A DNA stretch of 64,000 nucleotides, taken from contig NZ_CP128360.1 in NCBI RefSeq assembly GCF_030345095.1, positions 2,480,001-2,544,000 of the forward strand, in the 5' to 3' direction. The notes under the pieces were generated by a model. The model was not told where the DNA came from, searched no databases, and saw nothing but the letters and a program-made list of their open reading frames with translations. The position numbers and the translations under genes were made by a program. Below are positions 56,988 through 63,795 of the stretch, piece by piece (within the stretch, counting starts at the first letter, position 1; each line of letters starts with the position of its first letter). The DNA comes from Solwaraspora sp. WMMA2056. Its GTDB lineage: Bacteria; Actinomycetota; Actinomycetes; Mycobacteriales; Micromonosporaceae.

Positions 56988-58280
56988 ATGCGCCGGATAG
57001 CCGTTCTTGACGCACCGTCGAATCTCGGTCTGCGCCCGCCGACCGAGACGTCGGTGCCCGGCTGCGCGAAAGCGCCCGGCGCACTGCGTGACCACGCCCT
57101 GGTGGCCCGGCTCGGCGCCCGCGACGCCGGCTGCCTCACTCCACCGAGGTTCGACCCGGCGGACTGGCGCCCCGGTGACGGGGTGTGCCACGCCGGGTCG
57201 ATCTCGGCGTACTCGACGGCGCTCGCCGGCCGGATCGGGGCGATCATCGACGCCGGCGAGTTTCCGGTGGTCCTCGGTGGCGACTGCTCGATCCTGCTGG
57301 GCGCGGCCCTGGCGATGCACCGGCTCGGTGAGTCCGTCGGCGGCCGGATCGGGCTGGTCTTCGTCGACGGGCACTCCGACTTCCGCCACCCCGGCAACGC
57401 CTCCTACGTGGGCGCGGCGGCCGGTGAGGACCTGGCCCTGGTCACCGGCCGGGGCCAGCCGGACCTGGCCGCCATCGAGGGCCGCCGGCCGTACTTCCGC
57501 GACGTCGACGTGGTGGTGCTCGGCATCCGGGCCCAGGACGAGTACCGGCTCGACCTGCAGGCGGCCGGGATCGTCACCCGGCCGGTGCCGGCGCTGCGGG
57601 CCGAGGGCGCGGCGCGCAGCGCCCAGTGGGCCCGGGACCAGCTGGTCGACTGCGCCGGCTACTGGGTGCACGTCGACGTCGACGTGTTGGACCCGGCGGT
57701 GATGCCGGCCGTCGACGCCCCCGACCCGGGTGGCATCGCCTTCGCCGAGCTGGAGCTGCTGCTGGCGGAGCTGGTCGACACGCCGCACTGTCTCGGTGTC
57801 GAGCTGACCGTCTTCGACCCGGACTACGACCCGGACGGCAGCTATGCGGCGGACATCGTCGCCACCCTGGTCGCCGGGCTGCGCCCGGTGCACGGTGACC
57901 GGCCCGCCGGCGACGCGGCCACGGCCTCGCCGTCGCCGGCGCCGGAGACCTCGCCGTCGCCGGCCACGCAGCCGGCGGCCCCGGCTGCGGTCCCGGCGGT
58001 CCCGGCGACAGCTCCGGCCGCCGCCTCGACCGCGACCACCTCGACCGCCGCCGGGTCGGCCGAGCCGGACGCTCCGGCGGTGGCGGCGCTGCGACCTGCG
58101 GTGCCACCGGTCCCGCCGGTGACGTTGACGATCGCCGACCGGATCGCGCCGCGTGGGGCGACCAAGCCGGGACGGCTACGGCGACCGGCGCCGTCCCCAC
58201 GGCCCGCTGTCGCGGATTCCGCCGACCCGACACCGCAGCCGACGCCCGACGAAGTGCCCGCCCCGCCCGCCACGGAGTAG
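56988..58280 (+). CDS. Arginase/agmatinase-family protein with a long Pro/Ala-rich tail
   Basis: 430 residues. Residues 1-305 form a ureohydrolase domain: 'FPVVLGGDCSILLGAALAMH', VFVDGHSDFRH, HVDVDVLDPAVMPAVD and VELTVFDPDYDPDG. These correspond to the manganese-binding motifs GGDHS, DAHxD, SxDxDxxDP and E-x; the first His is Cys and the second motif is DGHSD, so the metal site is altered and the substrate may not be arginine. The family also includes formiminoglutamase and others. The last 125 residues (about 305-430) are Ala/Pro/Ser/Thr repeats and disordered, unusual for a cytoplasmic ureohydrolase. It begins 8 bases after the thioredoxin gene. Confidence 0.8.
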   Translation: MRRIAVLDAPSNLGLRPPTETSVPGCAKAPGALRDHALVARLGARDAGCLTPPRFDPADWRPGDGVCHAGSISAYSTALAGRIGAIIDAGEFPVVLGGDCSILLGAALAMHRLGESVGGRIGLVFVDGHSDFRHPGNASYVGAAAGEDLALVTGRGQPDLAAIEGRRPYFRDVDVVVLGIRAQDEYRLDLQAAGIVTRPVPALRAEGAARSAQWARDQLVDCAGYWVHVDVDVLDPAVMPAVDAPDPGGIAFAELELLLAELVDTPHCLGVELTVFDPDYDPDGSYAADIVATLVAGLRPVHGDRPAGDAATASPSPAPETSPSPATQPAAPAAVPAVPATAPAAASTATTSTAAGSAEPDAPAVAALRPAVPPVPPVTLTIADRIAPRGATKPGRLRRPAPSPRPAVADSADPTPQPTPDEVPAPPATE

Positions 58281-58383: not shown

Positions 58384-59403
58384 ATGGTGTCGACGGCGCG
58401 TAAGGTCTCGCTGACTGGTATCAAGCCGACTGGTGAGCCGCACCTGGGCAACTACATCGGCGCGATCCTTCCCGCATTGAGGCTGGCCGACAGCTATGAG
58501 TCTCTGTACTTCATTGCGGACTATCATGCATTGACGACGATCCGTGACCGCGATCTGTTGCGGCACTACACCCGTTCGGTGGCCGCGACGTGGCTCGCGG
58601 CCGGCCTCGACCCGGACCGCACCACTTTCTATCGTCAGTCGGACATCCCGGAGATTTTTGAGCTGTCCTGGGTGCTGTCTTGCCTGACCGGCAAGGGGTT
58701 GATGAACCGGGCGCACGCGTACAAGGCGGCGCGCGACCGTAACCGTGCGGCCGGCAAGGAGGATCTGGACGCGGGTGTGAACATGGGCCTGTTCAACTAC
58801 CCGGTGCTGATGGCGGTTGACATTCTCATCATGGACGCCGATGTGGTGCCGGTTGGCCGTGACCAGGTCCAGCACGTTGAGTACGCAGCTGACATCGCCG
58901 GTGCCTTCAACGCCGTCTACGGCGATCGATTCAGGCTGAAGATCCCAGCTGCCGTCATACCGGATGAGGGCTCGGCGCAGACCCTGCCCGGCGTCGACGG
59001 ACGGAAGATGAGCAAGTCCTACGGCAACACGATTCCGTTGTTCGAGTCCGACGCCGCCCTGCGGAAGATGATCCGGCGGATCCCGACTGACAGCGTGCCG
59101 GTCGAGGAGCCGAAGGACCCTGACTCGGCTGCTGTTTTCACGCTGCTGGAGCGGTTCGGCGAGACGGACGTCGTTGCCGAGACCCGGGCACGGCTGTCGG
59201 CCGGTGGGATGGGCTGGGGCGAGGTGAAGGCCCAGCTGACCGATGCGTTGATCGCCCAGTTCGCGCCGCTGCGGGAGCGCTACGAGGCGCTGATGGCACC
59301 TGGCAGCGAACTGGACGACCTCCTCGCGCACGGCGCGGACAAGGCCCGTAAGCAGACCCGACCGTTGCTGGAGCGGGTGCGCGACGCCGTCGGCATCGGG
59401 TAG
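58384..59403 (+). CDS. trpS: Tryptophanyl-tRNA synthetase
   Basis: 339 residues from the ATG at 58384; the frame is open 230 bases further upstream but that part overlaps the arginase gene and does not resemble the family. SLTGIKPTGEPHLGNYIGAI holds the class I HIGH motif (HLGN), and VDGRKMSKSYGN the KMSKS loop. MDADVVPVGRDQVQHVEYA and 'ADYHALTTIRD' are the tryptophan-pocket and helix blocks of bacterial TrpRS. Codons are clearly less GC-rich than in neighbouring genes (cat, att, gca, ttg), consistent with conserved-essential or transferred origin. It lies beside a locus with TrpRS-like and TrpD-like paralogues; whether it is the main or an auxiliary (antibiotic-resistant) TrpRS cannot be told. 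Confidence 0.92.
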   Translation: MVSTARKVSLTGIKPTGEPHLGNYIGAILPALRLADSYESLYFIADYHALTTIRDRDLLRHYTRSVAATWLAAGLDPDRTTFYRQSDIPEIFELSWVLSCLTGKGLMNRAHAYKAARDRNRAAGKEDLDAGVNMGLFNYPVLMAVDILIMDADVVPVGRDQVQHVEYAADIAGAFNAVYGDRFRLKIPAAVIPDEGSAQTLPGVDGRKMSKSYGNTIPLFESDAALRKMIRRIPTDSVPVEEPKDPDSAAVFTLLERFGETDVVAETRARLSAGGMGWGEVKAQLTDALIAQFAPLRERYEALMAPGSELDDLLAHGADKARKQTRPLLERVRDAVGIG

Positions 59404-59425
59404 GCGCTGACAGCGTGCCTTGCCG

Positions 59426-59977
59426 TCAAACGAGTGCGTCGACTACCTGATCGGCGCAGTGCCAGGCGGTCGTCCATTTGCCGGGCAGCGCGACCAGCAG
59501 GTTGGCCGCTGGGGTCCAGCCGGTTGGTGGTTTCCTGAGATCGACGACCAGGCTCGATGGGTCGGCCTGCGGGCTGGCCGGCTCGCACACGGTGCCCCAC
59601 AGCAGGCTGAGGTCACGGCCGGGCCGTTGAACTCCGCGCAGGTGGAGGGCGGTCTGTAGCCGGGCATGTTCTTCCTCGGCCGGTCCATACTGGCCGTCGA
59701 CTGCGGGCAGGCCAACACGGGTGCCCCCGAGATCTGGACTGAGGGCGAGGAGGTCGCCGTCCAGCCAGTAGGTCAAGCTCCGTACGCGGGTGCCGGCCTG
59801 CCGTCCCCAGGCGATGCGCCGGGTGCGGAGCGTGTGCCGGATCCCGGCTCGGGCCAACAGTCGCGGTGTACCGGCGCCGGCTGCCAGGACCAGCATGCGT
59901 GCCCGTGGGGCGGCACGCGGTGCGTTCTGTGCGATGGAGACGAGGCAACTGGCCGGATCTCGACGTAGGGTGACCTC
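59426..59977 (-). pseudogene. C-terminal fragment, probably of an FAD-dependent oxidoreductase, cut by the IS element
   Basis: The frame is open from the IS boundary (59977, reading VTLRRDPASCLVSIAQNAPR) to the stop at 59426, about 183 residues with no start at the boundary. MLVLAAGAGTPRLLARAGI resembles the conserved VVLAAGAWTPELL strand-helix of DAO-type flavoenzymes, preceded as in that family by a strand-rich substrate segment. The end reads NLLVALPGKWTTAWHCADQVVDAL, which fits the last FAD-binding strand and helix of that fold, though weakly. The N-terminal FAD motif is missing. A second candidate identity is an SDR fragment continuous with 61306-61529; I consider that less likely. Confidence 0.5.
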
Positions 59978-60007
59978 TGAGGTCCCCCCGCTTTCGTGGA
60001 GCGGTGG

Positions 60008-60934
60008 TTACCTGACGCCGGTCGGCGCCGGGATGGTTCCGTTCGAGTCTGGCTGATCGATTCGTGTCGACGCCCAGGCGGTCTCGTACTCGTCCGGGCT
60101 GAGGTAGCCGAGGTCACGCTGGATCCGACGAGGGTTGTACCACCCGTCGATGTAGGTGAAGATCGCGTTCTCGGCCTCGTCGCGGGTCCGCCACGACGTC
60201 CGGTACACCAACTCGGTCTTCAACGTCGAGAAGAAGTTCTCCATCAGAGCGTTGTCATAACTATCCCCAGTGGAACCCATCGACGGCAGAATCCCGTTGT
60301 CCGCCAACCGTTGCCCGAACCGGAACGACGTATAGTTCGACCCCTTGTCGCTGTGGTGGATCAACTCCTGATCCCGCACATCCCGCGACCAGATCCCGTA
60401 CTCCAACGCGCCGAGGATCAGGTCGGTGTCGCACCGATCGGAGGTCTTCCACCCCACGATCCGGTTCGAGAACGCGTCCCGGACCGCCGCCAGCCAGAAC
60501 ACACCCTGACCGCACGGGATCCGGGTCGCGTCGGCAACCCACAACCGGTTCGGCGCCGACGCGGTGAAGTCCCGGTTGACCAGGTCCGGTGCCGGAGTGT
60601 GCCGCGGGTCCTGCTTCGTGGACCCGCCCCGCCAGCCACGTCGCAGGAACGCCCCCTGCCAACCCTGGCCGGCCATCAGCCGCTCCACCCGCTTACGGCC
60701 GACCCGGACACCGTCCCGCGCCAACCGCCGATGCACCCGGTCCGCGCCATAGGTGTGCCCCGACGCGACCCAGATCTCGTGGATGTTGGACAACAACGCC
60801 CGGTCGACCTCAGCCCGATCACACGGCCGGACCGTCTTGTCGCGCCAGCCGTAGTACGTCGACGCGGTGATGTTCAGGACCCGTAGCAGGAGCGCGACCG
60901 CGTAACGGCCACGATGTTCGTCAACGAACCTCAT
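60008..60934 (-). CDS. IS3-family transposase OrfB (DDE catalytic subunit)
   Basis: 308 residues. A helical HTH_21-like start ('YAVALLLRVLNITASTYYGW') is followed by the rve integrase core: WVADATRIP with the first Asp, LIHHSDKGSNY with the second Asp and ALMENFFSTLKTE with the Glu, then the conserved 'YIDGWYNPRRIQRDLGYLSP'. All three catalytic residues are intact. The ATG overlaps the orfA stop (ATGA) in the -1 frame relative to orfA, so expression may be by re-initiation or by a -1 frameshift as in other IS3 elements. Confidence 0.93.
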   Translation of the reverse strand: MRFVDEHRGRYAVALLLRVLNITASTYYGWRDKTVRPCDRAEVDRALLSNIHEIWVASGHTYGADRVHRRLARDGVRVGRKRVERLMAGQGWQGAFLRRGWRGGSTKQDPRHTPAPDLVNRDFTASAPNRLWVADATRIPCGQGVFWLAAVRDAFSNRIVGWKTSDRCDTDLILGALEYGIWSRDVRDQELIHHSDKGSNYTSFRFGQRLADNGILPSMGSTGDSYDNALMENFFSTLKTELVYRTSWRTRDEAENAIFTYIDGWYNPRRIQRDLGYLSPDEYETAWASTRIDQPDSNGTIPAPTGVR

Positions 60935-61242
60935 GACCGACGCCGGGTCGGGTCGAGCTCCTGGGCGAAATACACCGACGCGGCCTTCAAGATCTCGTTC
61001 GCCCTGCGCAACTCGGTGTTCTCCCGCCGCAACCGCCGGTTCTCCTCAACCATGTCCGTCGTCGGCCGATCACCGCGCTGACCCTGGTCGGCCTCGTCCT
61101 GACGGATCCAGTTGCGCAGCGCCTCGTGATGCACGCCGAGCTGGTCAGCCAGCCGACGGATCACCGGCTTCGGATCCGACTCCCGATACAACCGGACAGC
61201 ACGAGCACGCAGCTCATCGGGGTACTTCTTCGGTGCTGGCAC
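60931..61242 (-). CDS. IS3-family transposase OrfA (DNA-binding subunit)
   Basis: 103 residues. 'KKYPDELRARAVRLYRESDP' and LADQLGVHHEALRNWIRQDE form the HTH_Tnp_1 helix-turn-helix that recognises the element's ends, and ENRRLRRENTELRRANEILK is the leucine-zipper that allows OrfA and OrfAB to multimerise. It overlaps orfB by 4 bases. The small distance to the right inverted repeat (61281) leaves room for the element's promoter only. Confidence 0.93.
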   Translation of the reverse strand: MPAPKKYPDELRARAVRLYRESDPKPVIRRLADQLGVHHEALRNWIRQDEADQGQRGDRPTTDMVEENRRLRRENTELRRANEILKAASVYFAQELDPTRRRS

Positions 61243-61305
61243 GAATGCCTCCTCCCATGGCCATCAGACCACGATCAGAAGCTCCGTGAAACCGGGGGGA
61301 CCTCA

Positions 61306-61529
61306 ACCCGACCGCGAGAGGCGGCAAGGATGGCCGTCGTGACGGCAACGCGGGCGCGGTGCTCGGCAACCGTCAGATCCGCGAGAATCCAATGCGCGTC
61401 GGCGGATGCCTGGTCCGCTGGGCGGCTTCGCGCGACGGCGACGACGGTGAAACCGGCTGCGACGGCCAGCGGCGCAATGGCACGACCAAGGCGTCCGGAC
61501 GCGCCGAGCAGGACAAGGAGTGGGCTCAT
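61306..61529 (-). pseudogene. N-terminal fragment of an NAD(P)-binding (SDR-like) protein, truncated by the IS element
   Basis: The ATG at 61529 overlaps the stop of the TrpRS-like gene (ATGA). The fragment reads SPLLVLLGASGRLGRAIAPL, a clear G-x-S-G-x-x-G dinucleotide-binding start, then 'ADLTVAEHRARVAVTTAILAASRGRVE' and runs into the IS after about 75 residues. Only the cofactor-binding first half of the Rossmann fold is left. It was the fourth gene of the coupled operon starting at 63795, and its loss probably removed one enzymatic step. Confidence 0.75.
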
Positions 61530-62518
61530 CGAGTGCACCACTGCCAGGTCTCGGCGAACTGGGTGAAGGAGCGGCAGTACTCTCGGCGTGCCTGGCGCCA
61601 GGGGCCTGGCCGGAGCAGCCGATCGGCGAACGCCTCACGGGCGCGGGTGATGTCCGTGGCGTCCCAGCCGCTGCTCAGCTCGATGGCCGACAGCAGCGGT
61701 GCCTGGCTGGCCTCGTCGTCGCGCATCACCCGGTCGGTGATCTCGGCCGGAGTCATGTTCAGATGGATGCTCGACGCCGGGATGCTCTTGGACATCTTCG
61801 GGTAGCCGGCCAGTCCTTCAAGGACCCGGAAATACAGGGCGCCGATCCCGCCCTGCCAACCGAGACTCAAATCGCCGGCACCGGCCTGCCGGTGCAGCAC
61901 CAGCCGGGCCAGGTCGGTGAAGTAGGACTCTTCCACGCCGGAGACCATGAGGACGTCACCTGCGCCGCCCTCGAAAGGGCCGAGAATGTCGGCGACCGTG
62001 TACAGCGAGTCGACGACCACTCCAGTCTCACTGCCGAGCAGCCCGTGGTCGGCGTACAGCTCCAACAGGCTTTCCCGGTGCTCCTGGAAGTCGGCCCGAG
62101 ACAGGTAACGGGCCACCCTCCCGGCACGGATCAGGTTGGCGTGGTCAAGGTGAGACCGCAGTTCGGCCGCGTCCCGGTCCAGGCCGATCGCGACGAGGAA
62201 CGCGGACATCTGGTCCCTGACCTGGACCAGCGTCTGCCAGGGCACGTTGCGGGAGTTCCACGCGCCGAGGTCCGAGATGACGACGGTCATCGGCGCGCCG
62301 AGTCGGCGTTGCAACTCGACGATGCCGAGCATGACCGACAGGGTGCCTGCGGTCGGTGCGTTCGTCGGACCGAAGCCGGTCACGACAGACATCGACTGGC
62401 GCTTGTATGGGTCCAGGACCGTGAGCGCGTTGTCAGCGTGGGCGAATCGGGCTGCGGTTTGCCCGAGCTCTTCGGCCAAGACCTCGGCCGATCGCAGATC
62501 TATTGACGCTGGTGGCAT
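61526..62518 (-). CDS. Tryptophanyl-tRNA synthetase-like class I synthetase paralogue
   Basis: 330 residues. A helical leader of about 40 residues (SAEVLAEELGQTAARFAHAD) precedes VVTGFGPTNAPTAGTLSVML, where PTAG at 55-58 stands at the HIGH position, and ISDLGAWNSRNVPW follows like the next TrpRS/TyrRS strand. YPKMSKSIPASS (KMSKS 241-245) keeps the second ATP-binding signature. Overall fold and length match TrpRS, but the HIGH motif lacks the His and little of the tRNA-binding tail resembles TrpRS. It might activate an amino acid for a purpose other than translation. It lies between a TrpD paralogue (12-base gap) and the truncated SDR gene (overlap), all translationally coupled. Confidence 0.75.
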   Translation of the reverse strand: MPPASIDLRSAEVLAEELGQTAARFAHADNALTVLDPYKRQSMSVVTGFGPTNAPTAGTLSVMLGIVELQRRLGAPMTVVISDLGAWNSRNVPWQTLVQVRDQMSAFLVAIGLDRDAAELRSHLDHANLIRAGRVARYLSRADFQEHRESLLELYADHGLLGSETGVVVDSLYTVADILGPFEGGAGDVLMVSGVEESYFTDLARLVLHRQAGAGDLSLGWQGGIGALYFRVLEGLAGYPKMSKSIPASSIHLNMTPAEITDRVMRDDEASQAPLLSAIELSSGWDATDITRAREAFADRLLRPGPWRQARREYCRSFTQFAETWQWCTR

Positions 62519-62530
62519 GTCTGGCTTCCT

Positions 62531-63553
62531 CTACCTGAGGTCGGTGAGCATGGTCAGCAGCCGCATGGCGTTACCGGAGCGGCGAGCGTGACGAACCCGG
62601 GCGCTCGCTTCGTCGATGTCGACTCCGCTTGCTCCCACGACGAGCGCGGCGTTCAGCTCGACCAGCATGGTTGCGGCCGTGTCGTCTCCGGGGGCGAGCG
62701 CAGCGGTGACGAGCGCGGCGTTCCCGGCATGTGTGGGTTGGTGCGCGACGGCCTGACGCCATGAGGACGTCGGCTCGGTGCCCTGATGGATGCCGCAGGT
62801 GATTAGCCCGTCGGTGAGACGGGCCAGCCGCGCCTGACCAACGCCGGCGTACTCGTCGACGGTCTCGCCGGGGGAGAGCTCCGTGCAGGTGACGACGCCG
62901 AGGGCGAGTTCTGGCCTGATTCTCTGTAGCGCTGCGGCCGCGAGCGTGACGTCGCGGTGCGCCAGGCCGAGCAGGTAGCTGCTCGCGCGGACGCAGAGAG
63001 CGGCGACTGGCATGAAGAAACTTGCCGGATTCAGGGTGTCGAAGACGTCGTCGTACCGGTCTGCGTAGCGAGGGCAAAAGACTGGGTAGCCGACGAAAGC
63101 AATGCCGTAACGCTCCAGCACTTCAGGAATGCCCGTTGGCTGGCTGACCGGTCGTATGCCGAGGAGATCCAGGACGTCGGCGGCTCCGGAGACCGCGGAT
63201 ACCGATCGCGAGATTCCCTTGACGACGCGGGTCCCGGCGGCGGCGGCGAGGATCCCGGCCGCAGTGCTGACGTTGAAGGTCTTGTACTGCTCCTTTCCGC
63301 TGCCGGCGACGACGACAGTGCCCCCGGGTACGTCGACCGGCTGGCTGGCGTAGTTGGCGAGCACCGGGTCGAACTGTGTGATCACCGTCCACCACTCGGA
63401 CAGTTCCGCCGGGCCGAGGCGGTCGGCGCGGAGCAGGTCGACGCACCACCGCCGCCATTGCATGTTCGCCGATGGTGATTCGTCCCGAAGAAACGCGTAC
63501 AGCTGATCGGGCGACCATCTGTCAGACGGTGCGGCCAGGGACGGGGCGTTCAT
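62531..63553 (-). CDS. TrpD-like protein (anthranilate phosphoribosyltransferase/nucleoside phosphorylase fold)
   Basis: 340 residues from the ATG at 63553, which overlaps the stop of the upstream gene (ATGA). VAGSGKEQYKTFNVSTAAGI (about 83-102) corresponds to the TrpD phosphoribosyl-diphosphate loop V-G-T-G-G-D..K-T-F-N-I-S-T; 'VKGISRSVSAVSGAADVLDL' (111-130) to K-H-G-N-R-S-V-S-S-K-S-G-S-A-D-V-L. The end, 'NAALVTAALAPGD' and 'LVELNAALVVGASGVDIDEA', is the C-terminal helix pair of the fold. The GGD and the N-R of TrpD are replaced (GSGKE, I-S-R), and the D-E metal pair is not obvious, so anthranilate is not a safe substrate. Coupled with a TrpRS paralogue, it may make or modify a tryptophan-related compound. 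Confidence 0.75.
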   Translation of the reverse strand: MNAPSLAAPSDRWSPDQLYAFLRDESPSANMQWRRWCVDLLRADRLGPAELSEWWTVITQFDPVLANYASQPVDVPGGTVVVAGSGKEQYKTFNVSTAAGILAAAAGTRVVKGISRSVSAVSGAADVLDLLGIRPVSQPTGIPEVLERYGIAFVGYPVFCPRYADRYDDVFDTLNPASFFMPVAALCVRASSYLLGLAHRDVTLAAAALQRIRPELALGVVTCTELSPGETVDEYAGVGQARLARLTDGLITCGIHQGTEPTSSWRQAVAHQPTHAGNAALVTAALAPGDDTAATMLVELNAALVVGASGVDIDEASARVRHARRSGNAMRLLTMLTDLR

Positions 63554-63795
63554 TTGGTCCACCACGAGCGCGTCGAGCCAGCCGTGCGGGCACCGGACAG
63601 CTCAGGACGAGACGCTCCAGGCGTACGCCGAGGCAGGTGTGCAGACAGGCTGAACACCCGCGCCGCCCGTTCGTGCGCCGCGCACGGTCCGAGCGTTCCG
63701 CAAGCCAGGCACCTCCCATCGGCGCACGACACCACGTGCTGCGTCAGGACGGCCTGCGCCTCCTCCAGCTGCCCGCCGCCGAGATACGTCGCCAC
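63550..63795 (-). CDS. Small Cys-containing hypothetical protein, first gene of the TrpD/TrpRS-like operon
   Basis: 81 residues, GTG start at 63795 preceded by GGAGGA (63799-63804), a short 3-4 base spacing. The sequence has HVVSCADGRCLACGTLGPCAAHE: four Cys and two His in 23 residues, suitable for a zinc site, followed by FSLSAHLPRRTPGASRPEL, a basic Pro-rich tail. Similar small proteins occur widely in Micromonosporaceae without a known role, so it may be a regulator rather than part of the pathway. The stop overlaps the TrpD-like start by 4 bases. Confidence 0.65.
   Translation of the reverse strand: MATYLGGGQLEEAQAVLTQHVVSCADGRCLACGTLGPCAAHERAARVFSLSAHLPRRTPGASRPELSGARTAGSTRSWWTK

What the first reader, a model, noticed from the sequence alone, without database searches (positions are those of the whole stretch)
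61306..63795. Coupled operon pairing a TrpD paralogue with a TrpRS-like synthetase paralogue
Four leftward genes are linked by ATGA overlaps or a 12-base gap: a small Cys-rich protein, a TrpD-fold protein with altered phosphoribosyl-diphosphate and anthranilate motifs, a class I synthetase with KMSKS intact but no His in HIGH, and an SDR cut by an IS. A real TrpRS gene lies 3 kb away. The mix suggests a pathway that activates or modifies a tryptophan- or anthranilate-like molecule, perhaps a small antibiotic with trpS as a protected target. I know of no described system of this composition. The sequence shows families and coupling; the function is inference.
Basis: partly seen in the sequence, partly recalled or inferred. 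Interest (0 to 1): 0.82.

Follow-up and report, generated by a model that had tools for sequence, protein, structure and literature searches.

The report
Two-synthetase gene cassette, probable antibiotic pathway
A rare but widely scattered bacterial gene cassette pairs two repurposed enzymes with a spare copy of the enzyme that loads tryptophan (or, in a sister version, tyrosine) onto tRNA, which suggests that it makes an undescribed antibiotic aimed at that enzyme and carries its own protection.

Summary
The TrpRS-like protein (F1) has a TrpD-like gene, fragment or weak trace beside it in 30 of 30 non-redundant loci, from actinobacteria to Chloroflexi, Bacilli and candidate-phylum (CPR) MAGs. 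In class W (24 loci, like the window) the cassette also holds an ordinary TrpRS in 22; the other two are cut by contig ends. In sister class Y (6 loci) it holds a TyrRS in 6. TyrRS is duplicated in 6 of 6 class Y genomes and in 0 of 5 class W-only genomes checked. Of 300 family genomes, all 8 with class W F1 carry the cassette-type TrpRS; the 3 others that carry it are relics with intact TrpRS and decayed cassettes. Best reading: a new family of clusters making TrpRS (W) or TyrRS (Y) inhibitors through a phosphoribosyltransferase and a synthetase-like activating enzyme, with the spare synthetase as immunity. The window's copy is probably dead: an IS lies where most of an SDR and half of a FAD oxidase should be; the TrpRS is whole. 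Product, substrates and activities are inferred. SB-219383, a Micromonospora TyrRS inhibitor, is a candidate class Y product.

The parts
63550..63795 (-). small Cys-rich ORF (81 aa) overlapping the start of the TrpD-like gene; lineage-specific, not part of the conserved core
   Evidence: relatives only in L012-L015 and L023, the last the same genome as L015
62531..63565 (-). TrpD-like phosphoribosyltransferase-fold protein (344 aa from GTG; an ATG overlapping the previous stop lies at 63553), GSGK class
61526..62518 (-). F1: TrpRS/TyrRS-related synthetase-like protein (330 aa), TAGT at the HIGH position, KMSKS intact
61306..61531 (-). N-terminal stub of an SDR/epimerase-type oxidoreductase (called as 303 and 299 aa in L013 and L014), ending at the IS
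59978..61305 (.). insertion sequence: 25-base inverted ends, ORFs 60931-61242 (-) and 60008-60934 (-); IS3-like by recall, not searched
59423..59905 (-). C-terminal stub of a DAO-type FAD-dependent oxidoreductase (matches residues 185-346 of the 347-aa L033 homologue)
58384..59403 (+). cassette TrpRS (339 aa), second TrpRS of the genome, intact; proposed immunity copy of the target
   Evidence: (L013 homologue)

Best explanation
The window holds an IS-broken copy of a new family of biosynthetic gene clusters that make small-molecule inhibitors of class Ic aminoacyl-tRNA synthetases. Inferred mechanism: the TrpD-like enzyme transfers phosphoribose from PRPP to an acceptor other than anthranilate; where a HAD phosphatase is present it removes the phosphate; the SDR, DAO-type oxidase or other tailoring enzymes adjust the sugar-derived core. 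F1 activates tryptophan (class W) or tyrosine (class Y) with ATP through its KMSKS loop and joins it to that core, much as the CysRS paralogue MshC joins cysteine to an amino sugar. The product would mimic Trp-AMP or Tyr-AMP and block the matching synthetase, and the extra synthetase in the cassette would protect the producer. Shown: linkage, motif changes, a second synthetase of matching type in the cluster, the class switch, relics with intact TrpRS. Inferred: substrates, reaction order, product, inhibition, resistance.
For: 1) F1 has a TrpD-like gene, fragment or trace beside it in 30 of 30 loci; 26 of 30 show an intact (G/S)SGK motif, while 12 of 12 housekeeping TrpD show GTGGD and KHGNR. 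2) Class W loci hold a TrpRS in 22 of 24 (partial at a contig end in L041; L029 and L030 cut by contig ends); class Y loci a TyrRS in 6 of 6. 3) In 13 of 13 class W genomes searched (of 24) there are at least two over-cut-off TrpRS. TyrRS: two over-cut-off copies in 6 of 6 genomes with class Y, one in 5 of 5 class W-only genomes searched. G114 and G303 carry both classes and both duplicates. 4) In 300 family genomes the cassette-type TrpRS (E<=1e-90) occurs in 11: all 8 with class W F1 plus 3 (Fisher 1.1e-13, genomes not independent). Those 3 keep TrpRS intact beside decayed cassettes. 5) In the tree 26 F1 rows of both classes are one clade (SH-aLRT 99); cassette TrpRS rows fall in separate places (at least two label changes on starred branches, three in the best tree), most simply separate recruitments. 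6) The residue before TGFG/TGVG is V/I in 20 of 20 class W and T in 6 of 6 class Y rows; the matching TyrRS residue contacts the tyrosine OH (recalled). 7) F1 model (pLDDT 87.8) matches TrpRS (TMq 0.70-0.76 at ranks 1-9, 14-18% identity); TrpD-like model (88.6) matches anthranilate phosphoribosyltransferase. 8) Precedents: MshC, SbzA, and AcmF with the resistant AlaRS AcmD (passages).
Against: No product, activity or resistance has been shown. No exporter was looked for. F1 keeps a C-terminal helical region in the model, so tRNA binding is not excluded. CPR and Bacilli genomes of 0.7-1.6 Mb carry the core, an unusual place for antibiotic making. TrpRS duplication is not unique to the cassette: 4 of the 13 class W genomes have three over-cut-off TrpRS, and class Y-only G539 has two TrpRS-type hits (the other three Y-only genomes show one). 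L041 (class W) also has a TyrRS-type gene upstream. A second pocket position does not follow a Trp/Tyr rule: LMAAD or LMASD in 5 of 6 class Y rows (L061 unresolved), YTVAD or FTVAD in class W. The TrpD-like tree does not separate the classes: CPR and Bacilli class W rows group with class Y rows L048 and L061. The cassette-type TrpRS was surveyed only within one family.
Confidence: 0.62

Rival explanations
1. Same kind of cluster, but F1 is a tRNA-dependent transferase: the cassette TrpRS/TyrRS both resists the product and supplies charged tRNA, from which F1 moves the amino acid to the sugar core, as AcmD/AcmF do in ascamycin.
For: Ascamycin (AcmF with AcmD) and SB-203208 (SbzA) precedents (passages); an extra synthetase in every cluster not cut by contig ends; the F1 model retains a C-terminal helical region.
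Against: F1 keeps KMSKS/KFSKS in 26 of 26 tree rows, which a pure acyl-tRNA user should not need; no Trp or Tyr tRNA gene was found in the 30 loci, which are 3 to 21 kb long. Relics that keep TrpRS without F1 suggest that TrpRS is useful alone.
Confidence: 0.18
2. F1 is a regulatory subunit of the TrpD-like transferase, as HisZ (a HisRS paralogue) is for HisG, sensing Trp or Tyr; the cluster makes a signal or cofactor rather than an antibiotic.
For: HisZ/HisG precedent (passage); tight coupling of F1 and TrpD-like; presence in CPR and Bacilli genomes.
Against: HisZ is described as lacking adenylation activity, whereas F1 conserves KMSKS/KFSKS; the idea does not explain the extra synthetase, its class switch or the TrpRS-only relics.
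Confidence: 0.08
3. Stress or regulatory translation module: cassette TrpRS and F1 act on tRNA under stress, like TrpRS II; TrpD-like is a local tryptophan-supply enzyme.
For: Auxiliary TrpRS with stress roles are known (TrpRSII, passage); ordinary trpD copies inside antibiotic clusters are known too (trpD2 of the calcium-dependent antibiotic cluster, passage).
Against: TrpD-like lacks KHGNR and falls outside the housekeeping clade (support 100); every cassette copy scored is below the trpD cut-off. Class Y uses TyrRS with the same TrpD-like family. ADH, radical SAM, methyltransferase and glycosyltransferase neighbours look like secondary metabolism.
Confidence: 0.06
4. Chance neighbours or genome decay without function; the four genes only happen to lie together.
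For: The window copy is IS-broken.
Against: F1 with TrpD-like, and a matching extra synthetase, recur across several phyla.
Confidence: 0.02

Closest known systems
MshC, the CysRS-like ligase of mycothiol biosynthesis
   Same: class I synthetase paralogue in actinobacteria, used outside translation to attach an amino acid to an amino sugar (proposed for F1; passages)
   Different: F1 derives from the TrpRS/TyrRS branch; its acceptor is unknown; its cassette carries an extra full synthetase
Ascamycin cluster (AcmF AlaRS-like, AcmD resistant AlaRS) and SB-203208 (SbzA IleRS-like)
   Same: a synthetase-like enzyme builds an aminoacyl inhibitor and an extra synthetase gives self-resistance (passages)
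   Different: different synthetases; no TrpD-like enzyme is mentioned in the passages I saw
Indolmycin and chuangxinmycin (TrpRS inhibitors)
   Same: TrpRS as target; for indolmycin a second resistant TrpRS is described (passages)
   Different: both are described as tryptophan analogues; as I recall their pathways need no TrpRS-like or TrpD-like enzyme of this kind
SB-219383, TyrRS inhibitor from Micromonospora
   Same: dipeptide, tyrosine analogue, selective for bacterial TyrRS (passages); what a class Y cluster would be expected to make
   Different: no gene cluster seen in the passages read; the link is inference
Anthranilate phosphoribosyltransferase (TrpD)
   Same: fold and overall sequence
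   Different: GTGGD>(G/S)SGK, KHGNR>KxxSx, separate clade
Cyclodipeptide synthases (AlbC family)
   Same: Rossmann fold related to TyrRS/TrpRS catalytic domains, natural-product role (passages)
   Different: CDPS use charged tRNA and, as I recall, lack the ATP-binding KMSKS motif; F1 keeps it

Membership tests
Tryptophanyl-tRNA synthetase (F1 as a true TrpRS) | score over the curated trpS cut-off | tested here: not met
   best model 49 bits against 451; TIGR00233 30 against 176.75
Tryptophanyl-tRNA synthetase (F1 as a true TrpRS) | class Ic fold with a KMSKS loop | tested here: met
   fold match to TrpRS, KMSKSI
Tryptophanyl-tRNA synthetase (F1 as a true TrpRS) | groups with TrpRS rather than in its own clade | tested here: not met
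   26 F1 rows (of 30 loci) form one clade, support 99, apart from 35 TrpRS/TyrRS rows; quick tree, long branches flagged
Tryptophanyl-tRNA synthetase (F1 as a true TrpRS) | charges tRNA-Trp | not testable with these tools
   needs a biochemical assay
Anthranilate phosphoribosyltransferase TrpD | score over the TIGR01245 cut-off | tested here: not met
   90 bits against 199.05; cassette copies all below the cut-off
Anthranilate phosphoribosyltransferase TrpD | GTGGD and KHGNR motifs | tested here: not met
   SGK and KxxS invariant in the 15 rows; neither standard motif in the 11 cassette rows printed; both present in 12 of 12 housekeeping TrpD
Anthranilate phosphoribosyltransferase TrpD | TrpD fold | tested here: met
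   pLDDT 88.6, AnPRT in all 50 listed hits, TMq 0.65-0.76
Biosynthetic cluster with target-duplicate immunity | second copy of an essential target inside the cluster, another copy elsewhere | tested here: met
Biosynthetic cluster with target-duplicate immunity | the second copy resists the product | not testable with these tools
   product unknown
Biosynthetic cluster with target-duplicate immunity | the target copy can be retained after loss of biosynthesis genes | tested here: met
   3 of 3 family genomes with the TrpRS but no F1 hold decayed cassettes with intact TrpRS
MshC-type amide ligase | ATP-dependent amide bond between amino acid and amine without tRNA | not testable with these tools
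   inference from conserved KMSKS/KFSKS

The most novel reading that the evidence does not exclude
Two primary-metabolism enzymes, TrpD and a TrpRS/TyrRS ancestor, were recruited together into a previously undescribed antibiotic pathway whose amino-acid choice (Trp or Tyr) can be read from the spare synthetase in the cluster, and which is spread from actinobacteria to candidate-phylum (CPR) bacteria with tiny genomes. The class Y version would be the biosynthetic route to SB-219383-type TyrRS inhibitors, and the class W version an unknown tryptophan counterpart that attacks TrpRS.
Probability: 0.4. Interest if true: 0.9.

Novelty: new variant of a known kind. Interest (0 to 1): 0.82.

Why it matters
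If right, this is a genome-minable family of clusters for inhibitors of two essential synthetases, with a built-in reading of the target. It would give the TrpRS/TyrRS branch a synthetase-paralogue function: Table 1 of a 2022 review, seen as a passage, lists none for either (PMC9437257; the same review treats cyclodipeptide synthases separately). Ordinary trpD copies inside antibiotic clusters are known (PMC5270213, passage); a TrpD-derived enzyme with a new active-site motif would be another matter. The presence in CPR and Bacilli genomes raises the question of whether very small bacteria use such compounds against hosts or neighbours.

Tried and rejected
Considered and set aside. Housekeeping or stress TrpRS for F1: separate clade and far under the cut-offs. 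Tryptophan biosynthesis for the TrpD-like gene: motifs lost; an over-cut-off trpD lies elsewhere in 12 of 16 genomes checked, and the four CPR/Bacilli genomes have none. Phage or plasmid origin: no tblastn match in the phage or plasmid collections and no confirmed relative among 15 pattern matches in viral contigs. Cys-rich protein as a core part: not conserved. F4, F13 and F44 as one family: hhalign found no relation; F4 is DAO-type. F13 is called a glycosyltransferase and F44 HprK-like by eye only; Pfam gave no match for the members tried. Known indolmycin-resistance change in the cassette TrpRS: the DxHA motif is kept in the 13 actinobacterial copies aligned (the role of that His is recalled). 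Its VPVG(R/K)DQ motif differs from the E of the four actinobacterial housekeeping TrpRS aligned, but the nearest solved TrpRS (5tev) also has R, so I draw nothing from it. The archaeal-type TrpRS-A-like genes reported in CPR and archaea (PMC5370408, passages) were not compared with F1.

Literature. Searches returned 0, 7, 64 (20 listed), 5, 6, 5, 4, 11 (10 listed) and 26 (15 listed) papers; no listed title or abstract start points to this combination. Papers not listed were not seen, and the library lacks most subscription journals. Seen: passages of PMC9054317, PMC7916415, PMC12945691, PMC9437257, PMC5370408 and PMC5270213; abstract, outline and passages of PMC2922099; part 1 of 2 of PMC3089240; the rest as listings.

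Limits. The genome-contig scan needs exact 8-residue patterns, so class W is undercounted. Class Y was sought with its own query only in 394 genomes of the class (3 matched: 2 class Y, and the window's own class W F1); the other class Y loci came. My gene caller missed or truncated genes (it called none in L020), so presence was checked by tblastn. Trees used the quick method without bootstraps and 26 of 30 F1 and 21 of 30 TrpD-like rows.
Full report
WHAT IS IN THE WINDOW. Four leftward ORFs lie between 61306 and 63795 as described. The second is a TrpD-fold protein (PF00591 2e-19; TIGR01245 90 bits against a cut-off of 199). The third is a class Ic synthetase-like protein, here called F1 (PF00579 4e-8; best NCBIfam score 49 bits against 451). 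The SDR stub ends at an IS with 25-base inverted ends, 59978-61305. Past the IS lies the C-terminal half of a DAO-type FAD oxidase (59423-59905), then a convergent, intact TrpRS (58384-59403). In near relatives (L013, L014) the unbroken order is TrpD-like, F1, SDR, DAO oxidase, with convergent TrpRS and a HAD phosphatase behind it, and a divergent Nudix gene and an NsdA-family regulator in front. The HAD gene was not found in the window. The window strain thus lacks most of the SDR and half of the oxidase, and its pathway is probably dead, while the TrpRS is whole.

CONSERVATION. F1 at 62-98% identity was found in 7 other genomes among 300 of the same family. A pattern-based scan of genomes of 84,980 species found 21 F1 loci. 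These include Salinispora, Micromonospora, Streptomyces, Kitasatospora and Saccharopolyspora, and, at 31-41% identity, a Chloroflexi MAG, a Parcubacteria and a Berkelbacteria MAG, and two Bacilli MAGs. After merging duplicates I hold 24 class W loci. A more distant form, here class Y, is in six loci (L020, L021, L022, L047, L048, L061). In 30 of 30 loci a TrpD-like gene, fragment or trace lies beside F1. In 26 the diagnostic motif is intact; L024 has a C-terminal fragment, L029 and L030 are cut by contig ends, and L039 has a weak trace of 20.6 bits. In L028 the TrpD-like gene is split by a transposase-like gene. The SDR is found in 19 of 19 actinobacterial class W loci, with the window's stub counted. 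The DAO oxidase is in 15 of 24 class W loci, stub included. The Cys-rich ORF is in 4 of 24.

THE SPARE SYNTHETASE. Class W loci carry a TrpRS in 22 of 24 (partial at the contig end in L041); L029 and L030 are cut by contig ends. Class Y loci carry a TyrRS in 6 of 6. L041 also has a TyrRS-type gene upstream of its TrpD-like gene. The cassette TrpRS is additional: 13 of 13 class W genomes searched (of 24) hold at least two over-cut-off TrpRS, and 4 of them hold three. The window's other copy is at G000:C1:6877798. By the broader family PF00579, the seven other class W genomes searched (Chloroflexi, CPR, Bacilli, G041, G033) also hold further class Ic synthetases outside the cassette. For TyrRS, all 6 genomes with a class Y cluster have two over-cut-off copies, and all 5 class W-only genomes searched have one. 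G114 and G303 (S. tateyamensis) carry both classes and both duplicates. Against perfect specificity, G539 (class Y only) shows two TrpRS-type hits, while the other three class Y-only genomes show one. L048 also has a SerRS next to its TyrRS; the other loci searched do not.

RELICS. In the same 300 family genomes the cassette-type TrpRS occurs in 11: all 8 with class W F1 and 3 without. I fetched those three. All keep the TrpRS intact (84-90% identity) beside decayed cassettes: in L076 and L077 the HAD gene (two overlapping pieces in L076) and a 63- or 44-residue stub of the oxidase; in L075 the HAD gene, the oxidase and the C-terminal part of the SDR. Fisher's test gives 1.1e-13, but the genomes are related, so it overstates independence. 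Loss of biosynthesis genes with retention of the TrpRS is what an immunity gene would show.

PHYLOGENY. In a tree of 61 class Ic proteins (26 of the 30 F1, 18 of the 22 cassette TrpRS), the F1 rows form one clade (SH-aLRT 99), with W (98) and Y (91) each on one side of a branch. The cassette TrpRS label needs at least two changes on starred branches and three in the best tree: an actinobacterial/Chloroflexi clade, and the CPR and Bacilli copies elsewhere, the Bacilli pair next to a TrpRS from one of those Bacilli genomes. Separate recruitment of the same synthetase type is the simplest reading and suggests that TrpRS is tied to the product. The TrpD-like rows (21) separate from 12 housekeeping TrpD with support 100, but do not split by class: CPR and Bacilli rows group with class Y rows L048 and L061. 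All trees are quick searches, and long branches were flagged.

ENZYME CHEMISTRY READ FROM SEQUENCE. TrpD-like: (G/S)SGK replaces GTGGD and KxxSx replaces KHGNR (SGK, K and S invariant in 15 rows; 11 cassette rows printed), with the NxST element nearly kept; 12 of 12 housekeeping TrpD carry the standard motifs. From knowledge of TrpD (recalled), NxST binds the PRPP pyrophosphate and the KHGNR His and Asn lie at the anthranilate site, so PRPP use with a different acceptor is the simplest reading. F1: TAGT at the HIGH position in class W (TGGT in L041); KMSKS in the 20 class W rows, KFSKS or KMSKS in the 6 class Y rows. The residue before TGFG/TGVG is V or I in 20 of 20 class W and T in 6 of 6 class Y rows. 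That position corresponds to Tyr34/Phe5 of B. stearothermophilus TyrRS/TrpRS (recalled). A second position does not follow a Trp/Tyr rule. Models are good (F1 pLDDT 87.8; TrpD-like 88.6), with TrpRS and AnPRT as top structural neighbours.

TAILORING. HAD phosphatases occur in seven Micromonosporaceae class W loci (L013-L018, L024), in six Streptomyces/Kitasatospora loci (F9), in both Bacilli loci and in four of six class Y loci, which suits removal of a ribose phosphate. ADH-type genes are in six of six class Y loci; methyltransferase, radical SAM and APH-type genes are in some. F13, a glycosyltransferase by eye only (no Pfam match), is in six of six class Y loci and beside class W in L019, L028 and L038. 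NsdA-type regulators flank seven class W and two class Y loci by BLAST. No Trp or Tyr tRNA gene lies in the 30 loci, 3 to 21 kb each.

MECHANISM PROPOSED. PRPP + acceptor -> phosphoribosyl intermediate (TrpD-like) -> dephosphorylation and oxidation/reduction -> amide with Trp or Tyr activated by F1 -> mimic of the aminoacyl adenylate -> inhibition of TrpRS or TyrRS in competitors; the cassette synthetase protects the producer. Each chemical step is inference. Precedents seen as passages: MshC, AcmF with the resistant AlaRS AcmD and SbzA, extra resistant synthetases in albomycin, mupirocin and indolmycin producers. The HisZ-HisG pair is the best precedent for a regulatory alternative. SB-219383 is described as a unique dipeptide TyrRS inhibitor from a Micromonospora strain and a tyrosine analogue, which is what a class Y cluster would be expected to make. 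The search for its name listed five papers; I read passages or part of three and saw no gene cluster for it.

NOVELTY. Target-duplicate immunity and synthetase-like enzymes in natural products are known kinds. The TrpRS/TyrRS-derived F1 with a TrpD-derived partner is not described in anything listed by the searches; the library is partial and long result lists were cut. A 2022 review's table lists no paralogue function for TrpRS or TyrRS (PMC9437257, passage). I therefore rate it a new variant of a known kind, with high interest and moderate confidence in the mechanism.

Noticed in passing
L048:13923-15212: A full SerRS gene follows the duplicate TyrRS of this class Y cluster; whether it belongs to the cluster is unclear, as no other locus searched has it.
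   Followed up: partly
L040 and L041 (Parcubacteria, Berkelbacteria): Genomes of 0.7-0.8 Mb with no over-cut-off trpD carry the F1/TrpD-like/NAD-epimerase core and an extra TrpRS; L041 also has a TyrRS-type gene upstream.
   Followed up: partly
L042 and L043 (Bacilli MAGs): The F1 cluster follows a RelA/SpoT-type gene and includes an NTP_transf_5 protein (Pfam run on L043) and an unassigned protein with a P-loop-like motif (HprK-like by eye).
   Followed up: partly
L028:8401-9306: A transposase-like gene (by eye) splits the TrpD-like gene in Saccharopolyspora rosea; with the window and Salinispora L024, several class W copies appear broken.
   Followed up: partly
L020:10096-11016: A radical SAM protein that looks like RlmN/Cfr by eye lies between F1 and the duplicate TyrRS.
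   Followed up: no
window 56988-58280 +: An arginase/agmatinase-like gene (by eye) with a long low-complexity tail sits directly upstream of the cassette TrpRS, where relatives have a HAD phosphatase.
   Followed up: no
L033:7093-8681 and homologues in L031, L032, L034-L036: Streptomyces/Kitasatospora class W clusters carry an AAA_33 kinase-like protein and a second one with only sub-cut-off AAA_33 and chloramphenicol-phosphotransferase matches; they might serve as a second protection mechanism.
   Followed up: no
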